This document shows positions 1 through 12,704 of a stretch of DNA of 64,000 nucleotides, piece by piece. The position numbers and the translations under genes were made by a program. The stretch covers positions 1 through 64,000 of the forward strand of contig NC_027861.1 of assembly GCF_000187245.1 (NCBI RefSeq), written 5' to 3'. The DNA comes from Ogataea parapolymorpha DL-1. Its lineage: Eukaryota > Ascomycota > Pichiomycetes > Pichiales > Pichiaceae. Position 1 is the stretch's first letter; each line of letters starts with the position of its first letter. Under the pieces are notes generated by a model. It saw nothing but the letters and a program-made list of their open reading frames with translations, searched no databases and had not been told where the DNA came from.

Positions 1-560
1 TCTGACCCGCCACTAGGATACCACCTTTTTGCTGACCCGCCAGTAAATACCACCTTCTTGCTGCTTGTGCCCCACTAACCTAATATTTCTGTCTGCTCTA
101 TCTACTCCACTCCACATGCTCTACAGACATGTCTCTGCATCCACTTTCAGTGCCCTGCTTGTCGAGATATGACACCCGCCATGCAAACCCGCCACTAGGA
201 CACCACCTTTTTGGGGACTGACCCGCCACTAGGACACCACGTTTTCGCTGTCTGACCCGCCACTGGGGCACCAGCTTTTTTTCATGTAAACACCACCGCC
301 GAACAATAGAAACCCGCCATGTAAACACCACCACCTTTTTGTATGGGCCCACACGCCGGCCGACCCGCCGGTCTGCGACACCCGCTATACCCGCCGGTCG
401 TACTCCCAGCAAAACCACCCGCCGTTTGTATGGGGCGCACACGCCAGGGGACCCGCCAGGCACAGGCCCGCCGCGCAGACCCGCCGCGAAACACACCCGC
501 ATATCACTCCGCGTTTTGTCGCCCGGTGGAAACACCAACCCCGCCGGCACCAACCCGCCC
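1..560. repeat. subtelomeric degenerate C-rich repeat tract
   Basis: The heptamer ACCCGCC occurs exactly 13 times here (starts 5, 35, 174, 187, 221, 255, 312, 363, 389, 417, 451, 479, 553), usually 26-34 bases apart and often followed by a CACCACC-like block and a T run. At 538-545 there is one ACCCCGCC, which is a permutation of CGCCACCC, the C-strand of the telomeric octamer GGGTGGCG known from Hansenula. The C-rich strand reads 5' to 3' inward from the left edge, as expected at a left chromosome end. No credible gene lies here; the open frames are Pro/Arg-rich products of the repeat. Inference: subtelomeric decay product or telomere-adjacent repeat. Confidence 0.7.
187..288. repeat. 34-bp tandem repeat, three units
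   Basis: Three consecutive units begin at 187, 221 and 255, exactly 34 bases apart. Each starts ACCCGCCACT, continues through a CACCA-type block and ends with a T-rich run and a TG dinucleotide. The third unit is diverged (GGGG for AGGA). A related 30-base unit sits at 5-34. Confidence 0.75.
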
Positions 561-776: not shown

Positions 777-2483
777 TCAGCTCCATCGAGGAGCATTCAA
801 AATAATTCCGTTGATGAGTCCCGCAATGAGACCTGCAACGGGTAGCGTGACAAACCACCCAAGATAGCACCATAGAACCATTTTCCAATTGCAACCACGA
901 ACATCCATGTTGCACAAACCCACAAAGATCGTTCCACCAACTGCGCACTGGGTGGTGGAAACAGGGATTCCAAGTCTTGTAGCCATCACAACAGTGCAGG
1001 CGGCTCCCAACTCAATTGCAAAACCTCTTGCCGGAGATTGCAAGATCATCTTATTTCCTAGATTTGACATCAGCTTGTACGCAAACATCCAGCATCCAAG
1101 GACAAGCGATCCAGCAGTGAAACAAAGAACCCAAATTGGCACCTCGCTCTTGCTGCCAACCGTGTTCGTCTTCCAAATGTTATAGACAGATGACAAGGGG
1201 CCCGCAGCATTGGAAATATCATTGGACCCGTGTGCAAAAGACATTGTGCATGCGGTAAAGGCCTGCAACAAAGAAAACACATGCTCCGTCTTTGTGTCGT
1301 AAAACTTCGACTTGCTGTACATATCTTGAACTCCGTGTCCAAGAACTCCGCCCGCATTTGCCTGGTTGCTGATAACATCTTGTCTCCAGCCGTGAGTCAC
1401 TAATAACCACAAGAGTTTGATCCAGTGCTTAGGCTTGAGAATCATGCTTCGCCAAAGCTTTCTTTCTGCTGGTGTCACATAGTCGAAATATCCAATGTCA
1501 TCTGGGGATTGTGGAGAGGTATCAATGTTGCTAGACTGAGACTCAACTAGTGGAGAGCTCTCGCCGGCATGTTTTTCATCGTCCGATAAGGTAACTGGGG
1601 TTTCGTTCCTTCTTCCACGGTAATAGTCAATCACAAGTTCCACGTTGTCAGGCTTCGGTGGAATATTCTTCGTTGATTTGAAGTAGTATGTTGGTCCAGC
1701 AAGAACATGATAGAACTTGAGCGTCCAGTCTTCGTGAACCAACTTCCTAGTGAAATATGGGTGGAAGAAAAGAAGGTAAAGGAGCGTCGCAACTGCACCG
1801 ACTCCAAAAATCGAGCCGACGGTTGCACCAGTTGAAAGGTCGTTCAGCTTCAGGTTTGGTGCTCCCTTCCACACAACAAGCATTGTCAAGATGGAAAAGC
1901 AGATGAACACAATCACGGGAGCAAAAAACAATGCTTTTGCAATACTGTTTTTCCTTTCGAGGATACAGTATTTAGTGATCAGGAAGATAGTTGCAGAAAG
2001 AGCGCCGGTGATAGCAGGAGCAATGAACCACGAGGCAACAATTTGAGAGAATCCATCCCAGCCCCATTCGACATGGTCGCTACCGTTAGCAGCAATTCCT
2101 GCTCCAATCACTGCTCCCACAATGGAATGGGTAGTCGAAACAGGCATACCGATAGATGTTGCAATTGACAACCAAATCGAGGAGCCAACTAGCGCGCATG
2201 CCATGGTAAGCATCAGCACCGACGGGTCGTTTTCAAACGACTGCACATCAATGATTTTGCTTCTGATCGTGTCTGAGACCCTTGATCCTGCCAAAACAGC
2301 TCCCAGGAACTCCATAATAGCGGCAAGGATCATTGCTTGCCAGTATGTTAGGGCACGTGAGGACACAGATGACGAGAAGGAGTTGGCAACATCGTTTGCA
2401 CCGATGTTGAAAGCATCCAAGAATGCAAACAGCACAGCGATTGCAAATATGTAGTTGAACTCAGGTAAGGCAGCGTCTGTCAT
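777..2483 (-). CDS. PHO89: Na+/phosphate symporter, PiT family
   Basis: This 568-residue polytopic membrane protein imports inorganic phosphate with sodium at the plasma membrane. Both PiT signature halves are visible: GANDVANS near the N-terminus and GSNDISNAAGPL in the C-terminal half, each followed by a hydrophobic bundle. A long hydrophilic central loop (roughly residues 275-365, rich in Ser, Asp and Glu) separates the two halves, as in Pho89 of Saccharomyces (574 residues). The ATG at 2483 is the first in frame and gives a normal length. A CACGTT lies 72 bases upstream, a weak form of the Pho4 site. The gene is the first one inward from the chromosome end. Confidence 0.93.
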   Translation of the reverse strand: MTDAALPEFNYIFAIAVLFAFLDAFNIGANDVANSFSSSVSSRALTYWQAMILAAIMEFLGAVLAGSRVSDTIRSKIIDVQSFENDPSVLMLTMACALVGSSIWLSIATSIGMPVSTTHSIVGAVIGAGIAANGSDHVEWGWDGFSQIVASWFIAPAITGALSATIFLITKYCILERKNSIAKALFFAPVIVFICFSILTMLVVWKGAPNLKLNDLSTGATVGSIFGVGAVATLLYLLFFHPYFTRKLVHEDWTLKFYHVLAGPTYYFKSTKNIPPKPDNVELVIDYYRGRRNETPVTLSDDEKHAGESSPLVESQSSNIDTSPQSPDDIGYFDYVTPAERKLWRSMILKPKHWIKLLWLLVTHGWRQDVISNQANAGGVLGHGVQDMYSKSKFYDTKTEHVFSLLQAFTACTMSFAHGSNDISNAAGPLSSVYNIWKTNTVGSKSEVPIWVLCFTAGSLVLGCWMFAYKLMSNLGNKMILQSPARGFAIELGAACTVVMATRLGIPVSTTQCAVGGTIFVGLCNMDVRGCNWKMVLWCYLGWFVTLPVAGLIAGLINGIILNAPRWS

Positions 2484-2881
2484 GAAGATCTACTGAACGA
2501 TTTGACGGTAATTTATACTTAGCGATTATCGGCTGAGCTGACTTCTTGGCAGCCCACGTTCCTAATTAACTTTTATTAACTACCGAGGACATTCGGTTAA
2601 GATATGTCGTTTTGATCAAAGAAATATAGTTTAAAGCTGGTTAAAAAGAGCAGTTTCACAGCTTGGCAGAATCATACTTCTCGCTTTGGTACATCTTGCT
2701 AGTTCAATATTAGCGTAGAGGGCAAAATACAATCGAGAATTGTAGAGACCATGTGCTCTATTACTGCTTTCTTGGCAAACTTTGTGGCTGAAGATGCCAA
2801 GAAATTAAAACAGAAAAAAAGTTTTTGTGTGCCAACAAAAATTGGGTAAAAATGGTACTATTTCATTACTCGTGAAAAGTA
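2484..2881. promoter_or_regulatory. PHO89 promoter with CACGTT
   Basis: This 398-base gap holds the promoter of the phosphate symporter and the 3' end of the neighbouring aldo-keto reductase. One CACGTT, a lower-affinity Pho4-type E-box, is at 2555-2560. AT-rich stretches follow. I see no other gene. Pho4 control of phosphate transporters is established in yeasts; its use here is inferred from one hexamer. Confidence 0.4.
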
Positions 2882-3814
2882 TTACCAATCCTCCTTACCG
2901 AACTCCAAATCAACATCAAAATTAATGTTGTTAAACTTGTGGGGCTTTTCTCTGCCAATGTCTATGAGCTTCTCCAGGTCATCCTTCTGGAGGTAGACAA
3001 TCTTCCCATTCAACTTGATTCTGTGCGGCTTAAACGATTTGGGAACAACAGACACGCCCAAGTTGACGTGGTAGCTCAATAAAATTGTACTCGAACTGAC
3101 TGAGTACTTTTTAGCAATTTCTGCAATAGCCTCATTTTTCAAAATTGGAGCCCCATCACCGCCAAAAGGAAAGTACGAGGTCATGACTATACCTTTGGAA
3201 GTGCAGAAATCGCAAAGATCGCGACGTGGAAGAAGTGGATGAAGTTCGCATTGGTTCACTGCTGGGACGTATTTGCACTCTTTCAGCAAGCTTTCCAGTT
3301 TCGGAATCGAGTAGTTTGAAACTCCAATAGCTTTAGCTTTACCATTCTCCAAGCACTTCTCCAATTGTTGATACATCGTGATGTGGTCGCTGGACGTATC
3401 CCTCGGGATATAGCCGTCCTCATTTGTTGGCCGGAAGGGCTTTCCATCGTCACTGTCGCACTTAATAGGAATTGGCCAATGCACCAGCACCAAGTCGAAA
3501 TAATCCAGGCCCGAGACCTTGAGCGACAAATCCAAGCCATGTTCCATGTGTTTATGAAACGTAGGCCAGACTTTTGTCGTGATGAACAATTCCTCACGGG
3601 TCACTTTTCCCGTGGCAATGGCATTTCTGACCGCCTCTCCAACCTGATCTTCGCATCCATACAGGTAGGCCGTGTCGATGTGTCTGTAGCCGGCTTCCAG
3701 GATAGCGTATTCGACGCATTCGCGAATTTGAGTTCTATCGTTAGGCGACCAAGTACCGAGCCCGATGGCTGGCATCAGGGCTCCCGTGTTCAAAGTCAAT
3801 AGTACGGAGGTCAT
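2882..3814 (-). CDS. aldo-keto reductase, Gcy1/Ypr1-like
   Basis: A 310-residue NADPH-dependent carbonyl reductase of the AKR superfamily. Visible are the N-terminal MPAIGLGTW strand, DTAYLYG carrying the catalytic Asp and Tyr, TTKVW with the catalytic Lys, and LVHWP with the catalytic His. GVSNYS and the later VPKSF (cofactor phosphate loop) complete the family pattern. The frame stays open 10 codons further up to a TTG, but the first ATG at 3814 gives a normal AKR N-terminus. It lies downstream of the permease on the same strand with 126 bases between, at the edge of a putative catabolic cluster. The substrate cannot be told; an aldehyde made by the nearby oxidase is a guess. Confidence 0.88.
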   Translation of the reverse strand: MTSVLLTLNTGALMPAIGLGTWSPNDRTQIRECVEYAILEAGYRHIDTAYLYGCEDQVGEAVRNAIATGKVTREELFITTKVWPTFHKHMEHGLDLSLKVSGLDYFDLVLVHWPIPIKCDSDDGKPFRPTNEDGYIPRDTSSDHITMYQQLEKCLENGKAKAIGVSNYSIPKLESLLKECKYVPAVNQCELHPLLPRRDLCDFCTSKGIVMTSYFPFGGDGAPILKNEAIAEIAKKYSVSSSTILLSYHVNLGVSVVPKSFKPHRIKLNGKIVYLQKDDLEKLIDIGREKPHKFNNINFDVDLEFGKEDW

Positions 3815-3940
3815 GAAAATTAAGATAAGAGAAGTACTCCTCAACTGTTTAAATTAAAATAATAATAGTAGTGAACCGGACCTAACTATTTTGCGGTACA
3901 AATTTACAATTTCGGTCGGATAGGCTAACGGGTTCCAAGA

Positions 3941-5506
3941 TTAGTAAACAAATCTGAAGTGCTTGTTTTCCAGATCTGTCTTATCCTTGAGACCGGCGAT
4001 TTCTCCTTGAAGCTGCAGGTCTTCATCCTCGGCGGGGTTTCCGTAGAGTTTGTTCCTTCTCCTATTTTCATAGAAGATGTAAACTCCGAGAACTGCTCCG
4101 ATCGCAATACAGGCTGCAAAGGTACCAATGATAGTAGCCAGAGCGTGTGTGTATCTTGGAGCGTCACTAGCTTTGAATGCAAACGGACCGACAATATTAC
4201 CCAAAGCGAAAGTAATCAGGACCAGCGCGTTAGTAAAGGATTGCTTGGTGTGGCCACTAATAAGTTGTCCCGTCAGGGTCATTGCAAATGGATAAGTTGC
4301 TGAACAAGAGTTAATCATCCAGTAAGCAAACACTCTTCCCCACTTATTTGCTCCACCATCCTCGGTCGCGTACACGATGGACAATCCGGTGATTGCAATG
4401 CACATCGGAATGATCAGACCGGCAATTCTTAGGTTCTTGAACTTGCGACCGATTAAAACCCACACCCACATCTGACCAGCAGAGAAACACGACCATGGGA
4501 GGTTCACTAGAAGCGTGGTGTACTTGTCGAAATCAAAAGATTCCAACACGAGTGTGTTGAAGTTGGTAAGACCACCGTTAGGGATCATGGAAAAGAACAT
4601 ATACAGGGTCAGCAGATATGTCTTTGGATCCTTTAAGGCATGAAGAATTTGGTAATTTCTCCAGACAACAGTCTTGATTCCTGTCATGTTCTTTGAGACT
4701 CTTTTGGCGGCGACCATTTTCTCGTGCTCATTCAAGAATTTTGCATTCTGGGGCAAAGCTGGTAAGAAAAACCAAACTAGTCCTCCCAAACTGAAGGAAA
4801 CAAATGCCAGAACAATGTAGATATACTTCCATGGTGACAAGTTTCCACCAGCGTGTCCCAGACCATAGGAGACAAGACTGAAAACAATGTACAACCCACC
4901 TTGTCCAGAGTTAAAACATAAGTACCTCATTGGCTGTTCTGACTTTTTCCACCAGCATCCCACATACTTGATCATTGCGGCCGACACTGGAGTCTCACTG
5001 ATTCCCAGTAAGAATCTGATAACTAAAATTCCAGCGTAGTTTTTCGCTCCGATATGAGCCAGCATCAAAATACCCCAGGAGACACAAACTCCTGTAAGAA
5101 TTTTGGGAACAGAAAATTTGTGGACGAGGATATTGGCTGGGTACTCAGCTCCCAGGTATCCAAAGTAGAAAATGGAAGACACCCATGAATACTCATTTCC
5201 TTTCAGCTTAGTGTCCTCCCTGAAATTCAACATGACTGCCCAAGAAAGGGATGCCTTGTCCACATAGTTAAGACCATAGATAAGGGTCAGCAATGGAAGG
5301 AATCTCCAGTCAAGTTTACGTCTCACAGCTCTATCTTCCTCGGCATCCAGTTCCTCATCGATGTTATCTTTGAGAAGCTCGAAAGCTTGATCTTTGATTT
5401 CCTGGTCGTCCTGAGGAGATAGTACCGATTGGACGTGGATGTCGTGAGTAGAAACGCCCTTGGAGTCGTCGTATTCTTTTTCAGCTTCTGGTGCCTTTTC
5501 AAACAT
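3941..5506 (-). CDS. MFS permease, Dal5/allantoate anion:cation symporter family
   Basis: A 521-residue major-facilitator transporter with about 12 membrane segments between residues 80 and 480 and hydrophilic ends. The first segment region (LTLIYGLNYVDKASLSWAV) and the FLLGISETPVSAA loop are typical of the anion:cation symporters to which Dal5, Tna1 and Vht1 belong; these carry carboxylates such as allantoate, ureidosuccinate, nicotinate and biotin. It is divergent from the FAD oxidoreductase across 178 bases that hold two GATAAG sites, so nitrogen-catabolite control is likely. The ATG at 5506 is well placed. The substrate is unknown; context suggests an organic nitrogen compound. Confidence 0.88.
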   Translation of the reverse strand: MFEKAPEAEKEYDDSKGVSTHDIHVQSVLSPQDDQEIKDQAFELLKDNIDEELDAEEDRAVRRKLDWRFLPLLTLIYGLNYVDKASLSWAVMLNFREDTKLKGNEYSWVSSIFYFGYLGAEYPANILVHKFSVPKILTGVCVSWGILMLAHIGAKNYAGILVIRFLLGISETPVSAAMIKYVGCWWKKSEQPMRYLCFNSGQGGLYIVFSLVSYGLGHAGGNLSPWKYIYIVLAFVSFSLGGLVWFFLPALPQNAKFLNEHEKMVAAKRVSKNMTGIKTVVWRNYQILHALKDPKTYLLTLYMFFSMIPNGGLTNFNTLVLESFDFDKYTTLLVNLPWSCFSAGQMWVWVLIGRKFKNLRIAGLIIPMCIAITGLSIVYATEDGGANKWGRVFAYWMINSCSATYPFAMTLTGQLISGHTKQSFTNALVLITFALGNIVGPFAFKASDAPRYTHALATIIGTFAACIAIGAVLGVYIFYENRRRNKLYGNPAEDEDLQLQGEIAGLKDKTDLENKHFRFVY

Positions 5507-5565
5507 GAGACCACTTTCCTTCTGATCCAGGGTAATATATAGGTTGGCGGAAATCTTAATCAGGC

Positions 5566-5646
5566 CTTATCAATTTTTTGCCGCCATGCACCTCTATAAT
5601 CAGGACGCACAAGATTATGCATTGGTCGGGCAATGAATTAGATAAG
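5566..5646. promoter_or_regulatory. divergent promoter with paired GATAAG sites
   Basis: The 178-base gap between the Dal5-type permease and the FAD oxidoreductase contains CTTATC at 5566-5571 and GATAAG at 5641-5646, one on each strand. GATAAG is the established site of yeast GATA factors (Gln3, Gat1) that switch on genes for poor nitrogen sources. Co-regulation of the two divergent genes is inferred. Confidence 0.5.
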
Positions 5647-5684
5647 AAAAGAAGAAATTACACTTTTAATTTTCTTCGTTCACT

Positions 5685-7019
5685 ATGACTGACTACCTCC
5701 CCGTTCCCAACCCTACAAAGTCGTTTTGGCTAACAGCTGAAGTTGACTTTCATGACCACAGGTCAACTGCAGAGCTACCGGCCGAAGCAGACATCGTGAT
5801 TGTTGGTTCTGGTTATGCAGGTACTACAACCGCACACTTTTTGATGGAAGAGGGCTTTGATGGCACGATTGTCATGCTAGAAGCCCGTGATGTCTGTAGC
5901 GGAGCTACCGCACGTAATGGTGGTCACCTGAAACCCAGCCTCTACTATTCGCAAAAGTCCTGGACTAAGAAGTTTGGAGAAAAAGGAGCGGCAGAGATCG
6001 CTAATTTTGAGTTTGCTCACTTGGCTGCAATGAAAGAACTCATAGAGAGGGAAAAAATTGACTGTGACTTTGTTTTTGGTCGGTCCTGTGATGTTCATTT
6101 GACTTCCTCTGCTGTTAATGCTGCTCTGGAAAATTACCAGCAGTTTACAAAAAATCCTTACATTACCTGCAAACACGATGTTCAATTACACGTTGGAGAA
6201 AATGCAAAAACTATTAGTCACGTGCTGGACTCTGAGGTTTGCGTCACATTCACTGCTGGTCAACTTTGGCCATATAAGCTTGTGACCTCATTGCTCAGAA
6301 AGTGTATGCAGAAAGGGCTCAATCTGCAGACTAATACACCAGTCCTGGGAAGTGAAAAGTTCGAGGATAAATGGCTGGTGAAGACAGCCAGAGGAACCAT
6401 TTTGGCTAAAAAGCTGGTCATTGCCACTAACGCATACACCGCCTCGGTGGAACCGAGATTTCTGAACAAAATCGTTCCTATCAAGGGCATTTGCAGCCAC
6501 ATCACTCCAAAGGTCCGTCCTTCCCATCTGTCTCATACATATGGTATTAGGTATGATGGTGCAGATCAGGACTACTTAATCAACCGTGCCGATGGGACTG
6601 TTGTTGTTGGTGGTGCTAAAAAGCACATATTCCCTTTCAAGAACGTCTTCTACAACGTTGTCGATGATAGTACTCTAATCCCCGGAACCAAAGAGTATTT
6701 TGACGACTATATGAAACATTTCCACGACTGGAAGTTTACGGAAACGGAGACCGATCACGTCTGGAGTGGTATCCTTGGTTATACTGACGATTCTTTCCCA
6801 TATGTTGGTGAGATGCCGCACGAATCCAACAAATTCATTATTGCGGGGTTCCACGGACATGGGATGCCGCGGGTCTTGTTATCGGCTAAAGCTTTAGCCA
6901 GTAATATCATGGGAAAGGAATTAGAAGTCCCTGCGGCTTTCAAGATCTCTCAAGAAAGAATGACTAAGACCAGAAACGAAATTCTGGCCTCTCTGGGCAC
7001 TCCAGTGGCTAGACTCTAA
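5685..7019 (+). CDS. FAD-dependent amine/amino-acid oxidase-like enzyme, putative PTS1
   Basis: A 444-residue member of the DAO (glycine/D-amino-acid oxidase) fold. The FAD-binding dinucleotide motif GSGYAG is at residues 41-46, preceded by the ADIVIV strand, followed by LEARDVCSGATARNGG, and the C-terminal FAD contact GFHGHGMPR is present. Family members oxidise a C-N bond of amines or amino acids to an imine, releasing ammonia and H2O2. The last three residues are ARL, which matches the peroxisomal targeting pattern [SAC][KRH][LM]. The start at 5685 gives the usual short fungal leader before the Rossmann fold. It is divergent from the permease and followed by a dehalogenase-like gene. The exact substrate is unknown. 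Confidence 0.85.
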   Translation: MTDYLPVPNPTKSFWLTAEVDFHDHRSTAELPAEADIVIVGSGYAGTTTAHFLMEEGFDGTIVMLEARDVCSGATARNGGHLKPSLYYSQKSWTKKFGEKGAAEIANFEFAHLAAMKELIEREKIDCDFVFGRSCDVHLTSSAVNAALENYQQFTKNPYITCKHDVQLHVGENAKTISHVLDSEVCVTFTAGQLWPYKLVTSLLRKCMQKGLNLQTNTPVLGSEKFEDKWLVKTARGTILAKKLVIATNAYTASVEPRFLNKIVPIKGICSHITPKVRPSHLSHTYGIRYDGADQDYLINRADGTVVVGGAKKHIFPFKNVFYNVVDDSTLIPGTKEYFDDYMKHFHDWKFTETETDHVWSGILGYTDDSFPYVGEMPHESNKFIIAGFHGHGMPRVLLSAKALASNIMGKELEVPAAFKISQERMTKTRNEILASLGTPVARL

Positions 7020-7159
7020 GTATTATCTTATTGGCGACCTTGTCGCGAAAATCAAAAATGATTTTTTCTCCGACACTAATTTCTCGTAGTCCTGTTTTCA
7101 AAGGCGTCTTATCTTGCGGTATAAAGCTCATGGAATTTCCGTGCTTTACAAACCAAAAA

Positions 7160-7882
7160 ATGCCAGACATAATCTTCGATATTGTGGGAACGTGTATCTC
7201 GTATGAGAAAGTCATCGAGGGTATCGAAACCCGTATGGGTGAGCGGTTCAAAAAATCGGGAATCGATCCCCGGTTGTTTTTCTTTTTCTGGCTAGCAGGT
7301 TGCGAAAGAGATTACTCGTACCTTTCTCAGTGCGGGCAATACCAACCATTCCAAAAAGTGTTTAAGAGCACTTTCTATAGATCATTGTTTTTTGCTGGTG
7401 TGAAGGATCCAAGGTCTTATGCTACAGATGACGATCTAGAGTTCATCTACGGTGAATGGTTCAAGTTGGAAGGACGTCCAGAACTCAAGCAAATGTTCCA
7501 GATGCTTAGAGATAATGGGTTCACTATCTGGTGTCTGACCGATGCCTCTCACGAGAGAGTGGCTGGATATTTCAAGCGCTCCGGAGTTGAGATGCCGTCG
7601 GAGAATTTGATCTCTTGCGACTCGATCGGTGCGGGAAAGCCTGAAAAGGAAGTCTACGAGTTTATTGCCAAGAAAATTCCTTCGAGTGCAGAGAATGCGT
7701 TTTTTGCCGCCGCACATATGTGGGATTCGTGCGCCGCAAAACAGGCTGGCTTTATCACAGCATGGAGCAGTGTCCATGAGTACGATCCTTGTACAGAAAT
7801 CTTCGGTACTCCGGACATCCTGGCCACGGGTCTTGTTGATCTGGCAGAAAAAGTCATTGCTAAATACAAGAGCTTGAAATAG
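7160..7882 (+). CDS. HAD hydrolase, L-2-haloacid dehalogenase-like
   Basis: A 240-residue protein of the haloacid dehalogenase superfamily. The nucleophile Asp7 sits in FDIVGT, motif II is CLTDAS near residue 127, the motif III lysine is in GAGKPEKEVY near residue 159, and motif IV is AAHMWDSCAAKQAG near 183-196, the pattern of type II haloacid dehalogenases rather than of phosphatases. The frame stays open upstream (ATG at 7058, non-ATG before it), but the ATG at 7160 lies in an AAAAAATG context and begins directly with the first beta strand. It follows the FAD enzyme by 140 bases on the same strand and converges on the Zn2Cys6 gene 15 bases away. True dehalogenase activity is not proven. 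Confidence 0.82.
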   Translation: MPDIIFDIVGTCISYEKVIEGIETRMGERFKKSGIDPRLFFFFWLAGCERDYSYLSQCGQYQPFQKVFKSTFYRSLFFAGVKDPRSYATDDDLEFIYGEWFKLEGRPELKQMFQMLRDNGFTIWCLTDASHERVAGYFKRSGVEMPSENLISCDSIGAGKPEKEVYEFIAKKIPSSAENAFFAAAHMWDSCAAKQAGFITAWSSVHEYDPCTEIFGTPDILATGLVDLAEKVIAKYKSLK

Positions 7883-7897
7883 ATTAATTAATTATAA

Positions 7898-9568
7898 TTA
7901 GGCTAATGATAAGTACCATCCCATACTTTCAGAAATGTCGAACCAGTTAACACAGTGTGCGCCGTCCTCGTTGAGTTCCCATGCCTTGCGGATCAGAATC
8001 AAAACGAGCTCAAAATTTTTAACGGGAAATTTGGAACAAAATGATCGTAATCTGGCTTCCATTTGGTCACGATCCACTGGATCGACGCACGACATTCCAG
8101 CCACCATGAGCGCGAAACATAAGCCAGATTGGACATTCGTATCCATTATCACGTCCATGCAGAGCGTGAGCTCTTGGAGCATTAGCTGGATTTCTGGCAC
8201 TGCTGGAGGGGTCTTCCGTACCATGTAGCGAAGATAGATCCTCAAACTTAATTTGTAGGTCTCGAACAACGTAAGATGGTCTTCGAGCTCTTTGTCATCC
8301 TTCAGTAGTAGCAACGAGGGAGTGTGTGGATTAGTATTTTTGATTCGAGTTTCCAGCTCTTCGAAGTCCATCTCCAGCGCTGTTAAGAACTCGAATTTTT
8401 TCTGTTTATAGGAGTCACGATCCTCAATAGCATTCAAATCCTCCTGCATCTTGTCCAACTTGTTCTTGGTATTGATTATCTGGCCAAGCAAAACGTACAT
8501 TGGACGGACGCATCCTTGCAATGGATCACAGACGGTACCCGAGTCCATCAATTGCGTGGTGCCTGGAATTATGTCCAATGCCTCGCAGTACTGATCAATA
8601 GGGAACAAAGTGCCTTCCTCGTGGCTAGAACTGCTGAGGACATCATGGTAGAGAAAATTGGACAGCAACCATTTGGCCCCCTCTGTATCACCCAGTAGTC
8701 CCAATAGGGTCTTTAAATTGCCGTTGCACTCGTCCAAAATGAATTTGTGCAGCCTGCCAAAGATATCGTACCAGTTCTTAACATCGCCGACACAAATTTC
8801 TGCAGCACAAAGGATGAAAAACACACACACAAGTTCCAACTTGTCGGATATTGTCAACTCGTCTGACTTGAGGGTTTTGTCGCAAAGATCCACAGCGTTT
8901 TGGATATATTTCATCGGAGTTTCCTCCGACTTGGTGCCTGCCAAGAAAAGCCCAGACCAACCAATAAGTCCGCTCATAATGGCTTTGTTGTGAACTGCTA
9001 GAGGAATGTAAAGACTCAAAAGATAATTTGTTTCCTGAGGCAGAAGAGAAAGGGTCGATGAGACATAGTTGATGTAATAATCTAGATACCGGCTCTCTGT
9101 TTCACTAAGATGACGAATAAAGGGCAGCGAGAAAACGTTCATTTGTGGTTCATAGTCGAACGAAGTTTGAAGATTTGTCCTAAGTGTGTCAATAAGGGTA
9201 TGAGTGGTCGATACTCCAGATGTTTCCTCGACAGAACTTAACCGAACCTTGATGGCCTGGGACTGGCGTCGTTTCGCATTCTTGCGCTCTGTACCAGGTT
9301 GACGCCATACACACTCAATACCCAGTCTCTTGCACAGTCTGCAGACTGGCTTGGTTTCATCACAGCGTTTTCTGTGGTTAGTTGGTCGAAAAATTACTAC
9401 TTACTTGCGTCTGCGACATTCTCCGCATCCACTTCGCGAACGGATCGGACGTCCCGTGGAGTTGGTGTCGTTCAGAAGAGTCTGGAACTCGGCCAGGGTC
9501 TTGCCAGCAGAGTTTGCTGGCTTTTGGTCCACAAGAGCGAGGTCGTTAACAGTGAAGGCGTTGAACAT
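7898..9568 (-). CDS. Zn2Cys6 transcription factor, Uga3-like, with one intron
   Basis: Exons on the minus strand are 9568-9405 and 9371-7898, giving 545 residues. Splicing a 33-nt intron restores a perfect zinc cluster, cysteines 48, 51, 57, 64, 67 and 74 (C-x2-C-x6-C-x6-C-x2-C-x6-C), with Lys55 split by the intron. The body from about residue 130 onward resembles the fungal-specific transcription factor domain 2 found in Uga3-type regulators of nitrogen catabolism. Without splicing the zinc cluster is cut by a TAA. It is convergent with the dehalogenase-like gene and lies inside the putative catabolic cluster, so it is a candidate pathway regulator. The Uga3 likeness is family level, not orthology. 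Confidence 0.85.
9372..9404 (-). other. 33-nt intron in Zn2Cys6 gene
   Basis: The donor is GTAAGT, the branch CTAAC, and the acceptor CACAG follows at once. The intron is phase 2 and a multiple of three, but its second to fourth bases complete an in-frame TAA, so splicing is required. Joining the exons gives the uninterrupted GCGECRRRKRCDETKP zinc-cluster core. Confidence 0.88.
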
Positions 9569-10031
9569 AAAGATTTCGCTAAAGCCGAAGGTTCGTTTAT
9601 GAATTTAATTTTTTCTGATAAGATCCCAACATTTACTTAAGTAGGGCTAAATCTTCCGACCTTATTGATAGGCCAGACTCCTTCCAAAAAGAGAACATCC
9701 GACAAAAAATCCGCACGTGATAACAAAACTAGGTGTGGCAGTAGCGAACTCGGAGAAGAATCTGGTGCGAGGTGTAAATAATCTGTAATATGCTAGGATC
9801 TGATGCCAAACTCTGGGATAGCGCTGGTTAAGAAGGACCATAGACGGGTCCCCAGGTCAACTAGCTAAAACCTGGTCACTAAGGCAGGTTACTTCGACCA
9901 TTTAAATGACTCAGATGACATGAATAATATACTCTCCTTGGGAAACACGTGTTATATCATTTGTAGAAGCCATACTTTCAAGCCAAGGTTAAAAATGGAA
10001 ATCCTACTTCCTACACTTCAATCTCCATACT
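9569..10031. promoter_or_regulatory. divergent promoter with TGACTCA and CACGTG
   Basis: This 463-base gap separates the Zn2Cys6 gene from the second aldo-keto reductase. On the reductase side it holds TGACTCA at 9907-9913, the exact Gcn4 site, and CACGTG at 9946-9951, an E-box of the Pho4/Cbf1 type, 81 bases before the start codon. Nothing else gene-like is visible. Use of these sites is inferred. Confidence 0.45.
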
Positions 10032-11108
10032 ATGTCTTTCCTAGAGAAGTCCTTTAAATGGGAGCATGCGCCATTCCAGCTCTACACCAATCTGGGAGAC
10101 TCTGGTCTCAAGATTTCCAGAGTGATTCTTGGGTGCATGTCTTTCGGCAAAAAGAGCTGGTCTGATTTCATCGTTGAAGATGAAGATCAGGTGTTTGAAA
10201 TCATGAAAAAAGCCTACGACAGTGGCATCAGAACCTTTGACACTGCAGGAAACTACTCCAATGGCTATTCTGAGATCTTGGTTGGCAAATTCTTGAAGAA
10301 GTACAACATTGACAGAAGAACTATTGTGATTTTCACCAAGTGCTACTTCCCGGTGAGCGAGGAGCCTGGTGCCAATCCTACAAATGGTTCAGAAGAGGGT
10401 GTCAACTATATCAACCGTGTCGGACTCTCGAGAAAGGCAATTTTTGATGCCGTTGACAAGAGCATTGAAAGACTTGGAACCTATGTCGACTTGCTGCAAA
10501 TTCACAGGTACGACAGAACTACTCCAGCCAAAGAGACCATGGAGGCTTTGCACGATGTTGTCAAGTCTGGCAAGGCTTTATACATTGGTGCCTCGTCCAT
10601 GAGAGCATACCAATTTATCCGGCTCCAAAATATTGCTGAGAAGTACGGCTGGACAAAATTTGTCTCGATGCAGAGCTACTATTCTCTTCTCTACAGGGAC
10701 GAGGAGGACGAGCTGATTGCTTATTGCAATGAAACAGGTGTTGGTCTCATCCCTTGGTCCCCGCTGGCGGGGGGTGTTTTAGCCAGGCCCGCTGCCAAGG
10801 CGCATGATACTACAGTTCGCTCCTCGAACTCTCGGTTTCTTTCCTTTATTGGTCTTGGTGAACTGACCGAAAATGATAAGGAAGTTATCAACAGAGTGGA
10901 AGCTCTTGCTGCTAGGCACAAAGTTTCCATGGCTACCGTTGCGACAGCATGGATCCTGGCTAAAGGACAACACCCAATATTGGGAATTAACAAGCCTGAG
11001 AGACTGGACGATGCATTGGCTGCTATTAGCCTCAAACTTTCTGAGGAAGAGGTTCGATACCTAGAGGAAGCCTACGGCGTGAGAAAACTGCCAGCTTTGT
11101 ACCACTAG
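10032..11108 (+). CDS. aldo-keto reductase, aryl-alcohol dehydrogenase-like
   Basis: A 358-residue AKR of the long aryl-alcohol-dehydrogenase-like class (Ypl088w group of Saccharomyces). The sequence begins with the N-terminal LGDSGLKISRVILGCMSFG, then DTAGNYSNGYSE carries the catalytic Asp and Tyr, FTKCYF the catalytic Lys, and LQIHRYDRTTP the catalytic His. SPLAGGVLARP and the C-terminal LGINKPERLDDAL are family features of the NADP(H) site. The ATG at 10032 is the first in frame. Its promoter has a Gcn4-type and an E-box site. It is divergent from the Zn2Cys6 regulator, which makes it a plausible target. The physiological carbonyl substrate is unknown. Confidence 0.88.
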   Translation: MSFLEKSFKWEHAPFQLYTNLGDSGLKISRVILGCMSFGKKSWSDFIVEDEDQVFEIMKKAYDSGIRTFDTAGNYSNGYSEILVGKFLKKYNIDRRTIVIFTKCYFPVSEEPGANPTNGSEEGVNYINRVGLSRKAIFDAVDKSIERLGTYVDLLQIHRYDRTTPAKETMEALHDVVKSGKALYIGASSMRAYQFIRLQNIAEKYGWTKFVSMQSYYSLLYRDEEDELIAYCNETGVGLIPWSPLAGGVLARPAAKAHDTTVRSSNSRFLSFIGLGELTENDKEVINRVEALAARHKVSMATVATAWILAKGQHPILGINKPERLDDALAAISLKLSEEEVRYLEEAYGVRKLPALYH

Positions 11109-11257
11109 GTAGCAAAAACTTGGGATTGTCTTAAGATTTCGGTGATGTAGCAATCATACAAGTTGGGCCAAGGAACGTGCGTACTCAATCTTGAATGAAA
11201 TACTGAATGAATTTCAAGTAGATCAATTTTCTCAGTTTTGAGATTCTGCCTCGGAAG

Positions 11258-11263
11258 CACGTG
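11258..11263. promoter_or_regulatory. CACGTG (Pho4-type) upstream of acid phosphatase
   Basis: A perfect CACGTG lies 47 bases before the ATG of the histidine acid phosphatase gene, followed by an ATAAATAG element at about 11279-11286. In yeasts Pho4 binds CACGTG to induce secreted phosphatases under phosphate limitation. The assignment rests on the hexamer and the gene product. Confidence 0.5.
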
Positions 11264-11309
11264 TTTACTTCCAGTCGCATAAATAGCACACAAAAACTTG
11301 TTGTCTCAT

Positions 11310-12704
11310 ATGCTTTTATTTGCAGCCCTAGCAGCGGTTGACTTTGCTCAAATAGTTCACCATGCGCCTATCCAAAACGAATTCTCGGATTTGGACCAAG
11401 TTTTCAACTCCTCAAGAGGCACTAACCACGGAATATACAATTCATCTTTTGTCCCAAGTAGCAGGTACGGAGAGTATAATTTTTGCAACATGCCTCACGT
11501 AAGGAAGGATACCTATTCACAGGTGGACCAGTCGGAGTACAAGTTGCAGTTTGTCGAGGTTATCCATCGCCATCACAAAAGAACGCCCTACGCACAGAAT
11601 TGCTTCCCTGTAGAAACTCTGGTGCTCCATTGTGATGACGCTGTGAACAACTATTACTCCGAATTCAAAACTCCAGCTCAGATCAACAACACGATGAAGA
11701 TCTCCTGGGCCAACTACCAAAATCGGTATAACCCTTTTAATTTTATCCACAACGGCTACAATGGCACTTGCCAATTTCCTGAGATCTCTTCTGCTGGTTT
11801 AGAGGACTCATACCAGCACGGGCTTGACCTTTATGGGGTATACGGCGAATTACTAGAATTTCTTCCAGCACGATATGACCCCAAGCAAGTAAGATTTCGT
11901 GTGACTAATAATGTCATTACCTCCCACGTTGTTAGTGCAGTGGTTAAGGCCATGTATCCTCACGAAAAGGGGATTGAAGTGAAGGTGGAAGCTGATGGCT
12001 TTGACGCACTCGAGCCAACTTATTCGTGCGAAATTGCGGATGCCATAGCATCAGAGATCACCTCCTCGAGTGAATGGCAGAGACATCTGGCTAAGGCCGC
12101 AGACCTATACGATGAGTTAGACGACATATCTGGTGTTGATCCAAATTCAAAGGATTGGCATCAATCTTTTGATCATTATTTTGACAATACTGCATTCAGA
12201 TTGTGTCATGGGTACGATCTTGCTTGTAACTCCGGGAATTCTTCGCTCTGTATGACACAGCACCAAGCCGAACAGATATTTCGTCTAGGAGATTTTGAGT
12301 ACAACTACAAGTTTCGGATTCATGAGAACTCGACTCTATATGCGGCAACCAGCTACGGAGCATACTTCAATGAGCTAAAGCACCGTCTTCTTGAAAAAGC
12401 CAACGGGAGATCGAGTCTCAAGTACTCTCACAACGTAGCCCATGATGGTTCCATTGCACGAATCCTTGGATTTCTCCAAGTTGATTATCTCAGATGGCCA
12501 GGAATGGGATCGGAGGTTGTGTTTGAGCTCTACGAAGGACTAAATGATGGTGAATGGTATCTCAGAGCTCTTTACATGGGAAGAATACTGACAACCACAG
12601 GTCCTCTCGTGGAAACCGACATGATTCCACTCCGTGACTTTGTCGGCTATATTGAATCAATGATTGGAAAAGACGCAGAAGTGTTAGTGAATTACTGCGG
12701 CTAA
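11310..12704 (+). CDS. histidine acid phosphatase-like protein, secreted
   Basis: A 464-residue branch-2 histidine phosphatase. The catalytic RHxxRxP motif is present as RHHKRTP at residues 87-93, with His where most acid phosphatases have Gly, and the C-terminal HD dyad appears in VAHDGS. The N-terminus is short and hydrophobic (MLLFAALAAVDFAQ), fitting a signal peptide though without the usual basic residue. Several NxS/T sites suggest glycosylation. The frame extends four codons up to a TTG, but the ATG at 11310 is the real candidate. Related proteins hydrolyse phosphomonoesters outside the cell. Together with PHO89 it makes a second phosphate-scavenging gene in this arm. Confidence 0.82.
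   Translation: MLLFAALAAVDFAQIVHHAPIQNEFSDLDQVFNSSRGTNHGIYNSSFVPSSRYGEYNFCNMPHVRKDTYSQVDQSEYKLQFVEVIHRHHKRTPYAQNCFPVETLVLHCDDAVNNYYSEFKTPAQINNTMKISWANYQNRYNPFNFIHNGYNGTCQFPEISSAGLEDSYQHGLDLYGVYGELLEFLPARYDPKQVRFRVTNNVITSHVVSAVVKAMYPHEKGIEVKVEADGFDALEPTYSCEIADAIASEITSSSEWQRHLAKAADLYDELDDISGVDPNSKDWHQSFDHYFDNTAFRLCHGYDLACNSGNSSLCMTQHQAEQIFRLGDFEYNYKFRIHENSTLYAATSYGAYFNELKHRLLEKANGRSSLKYSHNVAHDGSIARILGFLQVDYLRWPGMGSEVVFELYEGLNDGEWYLRALYMGRILTTTGPLVETDMIPLRDFVGYIESMIGKDAEVLVNYCG

What the first reader, a model, noticed from the sequence alone, without database searches (positions are those of the whole stretch)
2882..11108. Uncharacterised subtelomeric catabolic gene cluster
Seen: six adjacent genes of matching logic: AKR, Dal5-type permease, FAD amine/amino-acid oxidase-like enzyme with ARL end, haloacid-dehalogenase-like hydrolase, Uga3-like Zn2Cys6 regulator and a second AKR. 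Transporter and oxidase share a divergent promoter. Known: subtelomeres of yeasts host regulated nutrient clusters. Inference: import of an organic nitrogen compound, oxidation in the peroxisome, then reduction or hydrolysis of the product, under one regulator.
Basis: partly seen in the sequence, partly recalled or inferred. Interest (0 to 1): 0.75.

Follow-up and report, generated by a model that had tools for sequence, protein, structure and literature searches.

The report
Yeast nitrogen cluster with paired enzymes
Near a chromosome end of a methanol-using yeast sits a group of genes that looks built to import and break down an unidentified nitrogen-containing compound, using an oxidase and a hydrolase that several other fungi keep side by side or have fused into one protein.

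Summary
The six genes are real, with two boundaries corrected: the HAD (haloacid-dehalogenase-like) gene starts at 7160, and the regulator spans 7898-9568 with a 33-nt intron inside its zinc motif. The window is the left end of contig C6 of an Ogataea polymorpha-complex genome.

The strongest result is the coupling of the FAD oxidase (DAO) with the HAD hydrolase. They are neighbours again on C3, in Pichia californica and in Talaromyces marneffei, and 21 of 35 hits in one search carry both domains in one protein, 15 of the 21 with a peroxisomal-type C-terminus. The carrier-DAO pair recurs on C4. GATAAG (nitrogen-response) motifs are concentrated in the cluster's non-coding DNA: 4 in 805 bp against 2 in 6,250 bp of other gaps in the window.

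The HAD has the C-X hydrolase fold of L-2-haloacid dehalogenases and no phosphatase aspartate. It lacks the halide-binding arginine and is remote from azetidine-2-carboxylate hydrolase. DAO relatives oxidise amino or N-substituted amino acids.

Best reading: a nitrogen-regulated cluster that imports an unusual amino or imino acid, oxidises its amine and cleaves a bond next to its carboxylate. Carrier, DAO, HAD and probably the regulator belong; the two AKRs are unproven. The substrate is unknown. A new variant of a known kind.

The parts
2882..3814 (-). AKR1, aldo-keto reductase (Gcy1/Ypr1-type, recalled); membership of the cluster uncertain
   Evidence: PF00248 E 2.2e-37; catalytic D/Y/K/H motifs present by pattern; best own-genome paralogue 46% at C7:423244, not near a chromosome end
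3824..3829 (+). GATAAG motif upstream of AKR1
3941..5506 (-). MFS carrier of the Dal5/allantoate-permease type (type recalled)
   Evidence: PF07690 E 2.4e-26; best own-genome paralogue 50% at C4:32747-34216, beside a DAO paralogue; next best 33%
5507..5684 (.). divergent promoter MFS/DAO with two GATAAG motifs (5566-5571 on -, 5641-5646 on +)
5685..7019 (+). FAD-dependent amine/amino-acid oxidase (DAO family), 444 aa, PTS1-like end ARL
   Evidence: PF01266 E 2.9e-43; PDB profile hits sarcosine oxidase/L-proline dehydrogenase, glycine oxidase, dimethylglycine dehydrogenase; Foldseek best 4ysh glycine oxidase E 1.5e-26
7108..7113 (-). GATAAG motif upstream of the HAD gene
7160..7882 (+). HAD type II C-X hydrolase (L-2-haloacid dehalogenase fold), 240 aa
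7898..9568 (-). Zn2Cys6 + Fungal_trans_2 regulator, 545 aa, intron 9372-9404
   Evidence: no close own-genome paralogue (best 31%)
9617..9622 (+). GATAAG motif between the regulator and AKR2
10032..11108 (+). AKR2, aldo-keto reductase; membership uncertain
   Evidence: PF00248 E 2.2e-67; 67% paralogue at C1:13310, in another subtelomeric carrier/FAD-oxidase/regulator group

Best explanation
A nitrogen-catabolic cluster. Step 1 (inferred): the MFS carrier imports an unusual, carboxylate-bearing amino or imino acid. Step 2 (fold shown by model, reaction inferred): the DAO, sent to the peroxisome by its PTS1-like end (inferred), oxidises the C-N bond of the substrate or of its ring-opened product with O2, releasing H2O2 and an imine that hydrolyses to a carbonyl plus an amine or ammonia. 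Step 3 (fold and catalytic residues shown, reaction inferred): the HAD hydrolyses a C-X bond next to a carboxylate through an Asp7 ester, X being more likely an amine or oxygen leaving group than a halide. Step 4 (speculative): an AKR reduces the carbonyl product. The Zn2Cys6 regulator senses the compound, and GATA factors hold the genes off while good nitrogen is present (both inferred). The order of steps 2 and 3 is open. The DAO-HAD pair is the conserved core.
For: DAO-HAD linkage: own-genome paralogues side by side on C3, DAO 47% and HAD 56% identical. Adjacent locus tags in 3 of the 4 species whose visible tags can be compared (O. polymorpha, P. californica, T. marneffei; not Zasmidium). 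21 of 35 hits to a fused HAD carry both domains; HAD-then-DAO order checked in 15 of the 21. These 15 fall into three parallel groups in both the HAD and the DAO tree. Carrier: MFS-DAO pair duplicated on C4; an amino-acid permease beside the HAD on C3 and in one gene model with it in two filamentous fungi. Nitrogen control: GATAAG 4 in 805 bp against 2 in 6,250 bp, Poisson p 1.5e-4; 6 in 1,551 bp at the C3 group. Of 8 subtelomeric DAO genes, 4 have both a related MFS and a Fungal_trans_2 gene within 5 kb (mean 0.73, p 0.0033); within 2 kb, 2 of 8 (mean 0.24, p 0.021). Chemistry: D7, T11, K160 and Y166 in 57 of 57 HADs, position 9 V or I, no Arg at position 45; DAO neighbours act on amino or N-substituted amino acids.
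Against: No expression, growth or enzyme data. The substrate is unknown. C4 and C7 carry DAO genes without HAD (one search found only the C3 HAD paralogue), so the DAO does not always need it. The C4 pair has no GATAAG motif in 323 bp. Neither Ogataea HAD has a PTS1-like end and the C3, C4 and C7 DAOs lack one by my pattern, so HAD and DAO may be in different compartments here. AKR proximity is not above chance (p 0.16) and MFS proximity alone is not either (p 0.087 at 5 kb, 0.19 at 2 kb). The distance limits were my choice, three of the eight DAO genes sit on one arm of C4, and two of the four counted share their partner genes. Zasmidium keeps DAO and HAD apart.
Confidence: 0.6

Rival explanations
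1. Subtelomeric mosaic: only the DAO-HAD and MFS-DAO pairs are functional units. Regulator and AKRs are unrelated neighbours brought together by subtelomeric shuffling.
For: Subtelomeres of this species are rich in MFS genes (40 of 115) and oxidoreductases (PMC3866509, passages). AKR proximity to DAO genes is not above chance, p 0.16. Arrangement differs between C6 (divergent) and C4 (tandem).
Against: The carrier/oxidase/Fungal_trans_2 combination recurs above chance within subtelomeres. GATAAG motifs also lie upstream of AKR1 and between regulator and AKR2.
Confidence: 0.2
2. Azetidine-2-carboxylate (AZC) detoxification and use, as by A. nidulans AzhA: the HAD opens the ring to 4-amino-2-hydroxybutyrate, and the DAO oxidises its amine.
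Against: The family profile matches AZC hydrolase 3smv only at E 0.022, against 9.5e-16 for a haloacid dehalogenase; AzhA is 44.5% identical to the Pseudomonas AZC hydrolase and is reported absent from Saccharomycotina (PMC8016842). In the parts of that paper I read, AzhA alone sufficed when expressed in S. cerevisiae; no partner oxidase is mentioned.
Confidence: 0.1
3. True dehalogenation: the HAD removes a halide from a natural 2-halo acid or halogenated amino acid, and the DAO deaminates it.
For: Closest solved structures are L-2-haloacid dehalogenases. Invariant His186 resembles the water-activating His of marine enzymes (PMC8490876, passages and a reference title).
Against: No Arg at the column aligned with the halide-binding Arg in 57 HADs (the role of that Arg is recalled). 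Score below the HAD_type_II cut-off: 82.7 of 125.4 bits.
Confidence: 0.1

Closest known systems
L-2-haloacid dehalogenases (HAD type II; ZgHAD 7arp, 1jud)
   Different: About 20% identical; no Arg at the halide-site column; motif-4 Ser/Asn replaced by Ala184/His186; close relatives found only in fungi; linked or fused to an FAD oxidase.
L-azetidine-2-carboxylate hydrolase (3smv, 8yvw; A. nidulans AzhA)
   Same: HAD C-X hydrolase used to open an amino-acid ring for nitrogen.
   Different: Only E 0.022 to the profile; lower structural Z (21.0); AzhA reported as a stand-alone gene, no partner oxidase mentioned in the parts read.
cis-Epoxysuccinate hydrolase of HAD type (8wbk)
   Different: About 20% identical; bacterial; epoxide substrate.
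Glycine/sarcosine oxidase, dimethylglycine and L-proline dehydrogenase, L-pipecolate oxidase AmaA, aminophosphonate oxidoreductase TIGR03329
   Same: DAO fold and FAD motif; best profile and fold hits.
   Different: 13-21% identical in the 50 fold hits shown; scores far under curated cut-offs (92-96 of 600-633 bits).
Known yeast nutrient clusters (DAL, nitrate, MAL; recalled)
   Same: Carrier, enzymes and regulator side by side.
   Different: Different enzymes; no matching cluster turned up in searches.

Membership tests
L-2-haloacid dehalogenase (HAD type II) | Score above the curated TIGR01428 cut-off | tested here: not met
   82.7 bits against 125.4; C3 paralogue 91.7
L-2-haloacid dehalogenase (HAD type II) | Nucleophile Asp, Lys and Tyr retained; no phosphatase Asp at +2 | tested here: met
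   D7, K160, Y166 in 57 of 57; position 9 V 54, I 3
L-2-haloacid dehalogenase (HAD type II) | Halide-binding Arg (Arg41 of L-DEX, recalled) | tested here: not met
   aligned column 45 has no Arg in 57 HADs, one of them a gap
L-2-haloacid dehalogenase (HAD type II) | Halide release | not testable with these tools
   needs enzyme assay
L-azetidine-2-carboxylate hydrolase | Close sequence relation to 3smv/AzhA | tested here: not met
   E 0.022 by profile; the AzhA sequence itself was not available
L-azetidine-2-carboxylate hydrolase | Ring opening of AZC | not testable with these tools
   needs enzyme or growth assay
Phosphonatase (PhnX) pathway | HAD matches a phosphonatase model | tested here: not met
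   no phosphonatase family among the five NCBIfam hits at E 1e-3
FAD amine/amino-acid oxidase (DAO superfamily) | PF01266 above cut-off and GxGxxG FAD motif | tested here: met
   149 bits, cut-off 27.9; G41, G43 invariant, G46 nearly invariant in 33 sequences
Peroxisomal protein (PTS1) | PTS1-like C-terminus kept in relatives | tested here: met
   DAO ends ARL; 75 of 120 listed hits and 15 of 21 fusions PTS1-like, but not the C3, C4 and C7 paralogues; import not tested
Nitrogen-regulated catabolic cluster | GATA-factor motifs enriched in promoters | tested here: met
   4 in 805 bp against 2 in 6,250 bp; binding not tested
Nitrogen-regulated catabolic cluster | Co-induction by the substrate | not testable with these tools
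   no expression data held
Uga3 regulator | Orthology to Uga3 | not tested
   no Uga3 sequence was compared; only Zn_clus + PF11951 architecture

The most novel reading that the evidence does not exclude
The DAO-HAD pair (and its fusion enzymes) is an undescribed fungal pathway for plant azetidine-ring aminopolycarboxylates such as nicotianamine or mugineic acids: the HAD opens the azetidine ring and the DAO cleaves the secondary amine, so that plant metal chelators serve as a nitrogen source.
Probability: 0.07. Interest if true: 0.85.

Novelty: new variant of a known kind. Interest (0 to 1): 0.52.

Why it matters
An oxidase and a hydrolase that are neighbours in yeasts and fused in three groups of filamentous fungi very probably act on one compound, yet no pathway for them turned up in the papers searched. 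Finding the substrate would name an enzyme pair found in several ascomycete classes and put a use to a fungal HAD branch now annotated as 'haloacid dehalogenase'. The yeast is a genetically tractable laboratory species, so the question can be answered by growth tests of deletion strains.

Tried and rejected
Phosphonate catabolism: suggested by the DAO hit to TIGR03329 and the flanking phosphate genes. Dropped because the HAD has no phosphonatase match and is closest to dehalogenases.

Bacterial origin or bacterial parallel cluster: the single genome-contig scan, which used two short patterns, gave 4 loci at 22-28% identity. ORFs of one (L007, Rhodococcus) were read and no DAO was noted beside the HAD by eye, without a profile search. 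The other three were not examined.

AzhA orthology: at first taken as likely; rejected after the PDB comparison.

Uga3-type operator (SGCGGNWTTT, recalled): no match in the seven cluster and flanking intergenic stretches scanned.

Nicotianamine catabolism in print: no paper with nicotianamine, degradation, azetidine and fungi; three papers whose listed titles do not concern it. Papers on a DAO/HAD/permease cluster: one listed (PMC5371717), whose passages tabulate A. nidulans genes. Dal5 + subtelomeric + FAD + yeast + peroxisom: none. These searches cover open-licence papers only.

A first permutation test left out some MFS and regulator loci and used estimated contig lengths. It was rerun with the 34 MFS loci (one locus was listed there in two pieces), all 25 PF11951 loci, all 16 AKR loci and true lengths; only the rerun is used.

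Full report
WHERE IT IS. The window is C6:1-64000 of an 8,874,589-bp, 7-contig genome. The DAO is 96% identical over its full length to an Ogataea polymorpha protein. Size and contig number fit O. parapolymorpha DL-1 (recalled). The finding lies within 12 kb of a contig end.

THE SIX GENES. All six are present. Two limits change. The HAD protein starts at 7160, as in its 240-aa orthologue P0121. The regulator runs from 9568 to 7898 with a 33-nt intron (9404-9372) that splits CGECRRRKKRCDETKPVCRLCKRLGIEC; spliced it has 545 residues. MFS and DAO diverge from a 178-bp promoter. Both AKRs keep D, Y, K and H motifs by pattern. Flanks are a PHO4-family phosphate transporter (777-2483) and a histidine-phosphatase-family gene (11310-12704).

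THE CORE IS OXIDASE PLUS HYDROLASE. The search found three paralogues of the DAO in the genome, at C4:31295 (55%), C3:1262612 (47%) and C7:1510153 (38%), all within 33 kb of contig ends. It found one paralogue of the HAD, 56% identical, at C3:1264289, 321 bp downstream of the C3 DAO. Outside this genome, positional locus tags visible in the two hit lists (120 of 1,670 DAO hits, 83 HAD hits) can be compared in four species. DAO and HAD are neighbours in three: O. polymorpha KL905_005388/005387, Pichia californica C6P40_001460/001461 and Talaromyces marneffei EYB26_003789/003788. They are apart in Zasmidium cellare. P. californica also has a second DAO (C6P40_004795) with no listed HAD beside it.

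FUSIONS. A search with the HAD part of the fusion protein P0081 gave 35 proteins; 21 carry both PF00702 and PF01266, 12 of them from Aspergillus species. In the 15 examined, HAD comes first and DAO second. Of the 21, 15 end in a PTS1-like tripeptide. The other 14 lack PF01266. Of these, seven were scanned: amino-acid permease in Cudoniella and T. verruculosus, multicopper oxidase in A. ambiguus, and no other above-cut-off domain in two Colletotrichum and two Fusarium proteins. Some may be merged gene models. In a tree of 57 HADs (34 of 83 stand-alone hits, 15 of 21 fusions, 6 others, 2 own) and a tree of 53 DAOs (34 of 120 listed hits, 15 fusions, 4 own), the fusions form the same three groups among stand-alone relatives. 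That means repeated fusion, or one old fusion repeatedly split; either points to a shared pathway.

CARRIER AND REGULATOR. The nearest own-genome relative of the MFS carrier (50%; the next is 33%) sits beside the C4 DAO, and the C4 DAO lies in the same yeast clade as the C6 DAO (support 99/95), so carrier and oxidase appear to have been duplicated together. The C3 pair is followed by an amino-acid permease (PF00324), and the C7 DAO also neighbours one. Of 14 PF01266 loci found (a lower bound; 38 candidates, 14 scored), 8 lie within 50 kb of a contig end. Of those 8, 4 have both a related MFS and a Fungal_trans_2 gene within 5 kb; random placement inside subtelomeres gives 0.73 (p 0.0033). Within 2 kb it is 2 of 8 against 0.24 (p 0.021). 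Fungal_trans_2 alone: 4 of 8 (p 0.017). MFS alone: 5 of 8 (p 0.087). AKR alone: 2 of 8 (p 0.16). All three: 1 of 8 (p 0.15). Limits: distances were chosen by me, three of the eight DAO genes lie on one arm of C4, and the two C4 cases counted share their partner genes.

NITROGEN CONTROL. GATAAG occurs 27 times in the 64 kb, both strands. In gaps between ORFs of 100 aa or more, the cluster has 4 in 805 bp and the other 27 gaps (first 600 bp left out) have 2 in 6,250 bp (Poisson p 1.5e-4). Counting the HAD promoter, which a longer false ORF masked, there are 5. The two flanking gaps, 2484-2881 and 11109-11309, have none. The C3 group has 6 in 1,551 bp, the C7 DAO-permease gap 2 in 1,432 bp, and the C4 pair none in 323 bp. 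GATA factors reading this motif in nitrogen repression is recalled knowledge.

CHEMISTRY OF THE DAO. The model has pLDDT 90.9. Profile neighbours in the PDB are sarcosine oxidase (1y56, titled L-proline dehydrogenase), glycine oxidase and dimethylglycine dehydrogenase. Foldseek adds L-amino acid deaminase, N-methyltryptophan oxidase and iminodiacetate oxidase. NCBIfam's best hits, L-pipecolate oxidase and aminophosphonate oxidoreductase, are far below cut-off. Most point to amino acids or N-substituted amino acids; the aminophosphonate model is the exception.

RELATION TO AZC. Biratsi et al. (PMC8016842; abstract, introduction, results up to heterologous expression, the phylogeny section and the first of two parts of the discussion read) show that A. 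nidulans AzhA, a HAD hydrolase, lets the fungus use azetidine-2-carboxylate, and report no AzhA homologue in Saccharomycotina. A survey of gut HADs also puts azetidine hydrolysis in a separate similarity cluster from the 2-haloacid dehalogenases (PMC12184663, passages). The window HAD is a different branch from AZC hydrolase and does not contradict that paper. The principle that a fungus can use a HAD C-X hydrolase to gain nitrogen from an odd amino acid is the best precedent for the reading given here.

VERDICT. Observation confirmed; interpretation partly supported. The carrier-oxidase-hydrolase-regulator reading is favoured at 0.6. AKR membership, order of steps and substrate remain open.

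Noticed in passing
L011 (G000:C1:5001-15000): A parallel subtelomeric group: MFS 451-1983, FAD DAO-family oxidase 2169-3458, Fungal_trans_2 gene 3467-4957, PhyH-like 5524-6531, second MFS 6563-8056, AKR 8295-9377 (67% to window AKR2).
   Followed up: partly
G000:C2:5695-5940, C4:24294-24557, C5:1328460-1328675: Three ORFs each carry two Zn2Cys6 motifs in tandem; all three lie within 25 kb of contig ends (lengths).
   Followed up: no
P0125 (Lachancea fermentati): HAD 75% identical to the Ogataea one although the genera are distant (recalled); horizontal transfer is possible.
   Followed up: no
P0225-P0233 (Fusarium): Nine HAD proteins of 582-770 aa; in the two examined the HAD starts after about 518-535 residues that have no above-cut-off Pfam match.
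   Followed up: partly
P0107 (Gonapodya prolifera): The DAO of an early-branching fungus groups with the DAO halves of the Thozetella and Periconia fusions.
   Followed up: no
window 1-560: Short diverged repeats with ACCACCTTTTT and GACCCGCCA at the contig end, seen by eye; GGGTGGCGG was not found in the window.
   Followed up: no
G000:C7:1511536-1511583: A close GATAAG pair in the C7 DAO-permease gap, one of 63 genome-wide matches of the paired pattern against 32 for the reversed control.
   Followed up: no
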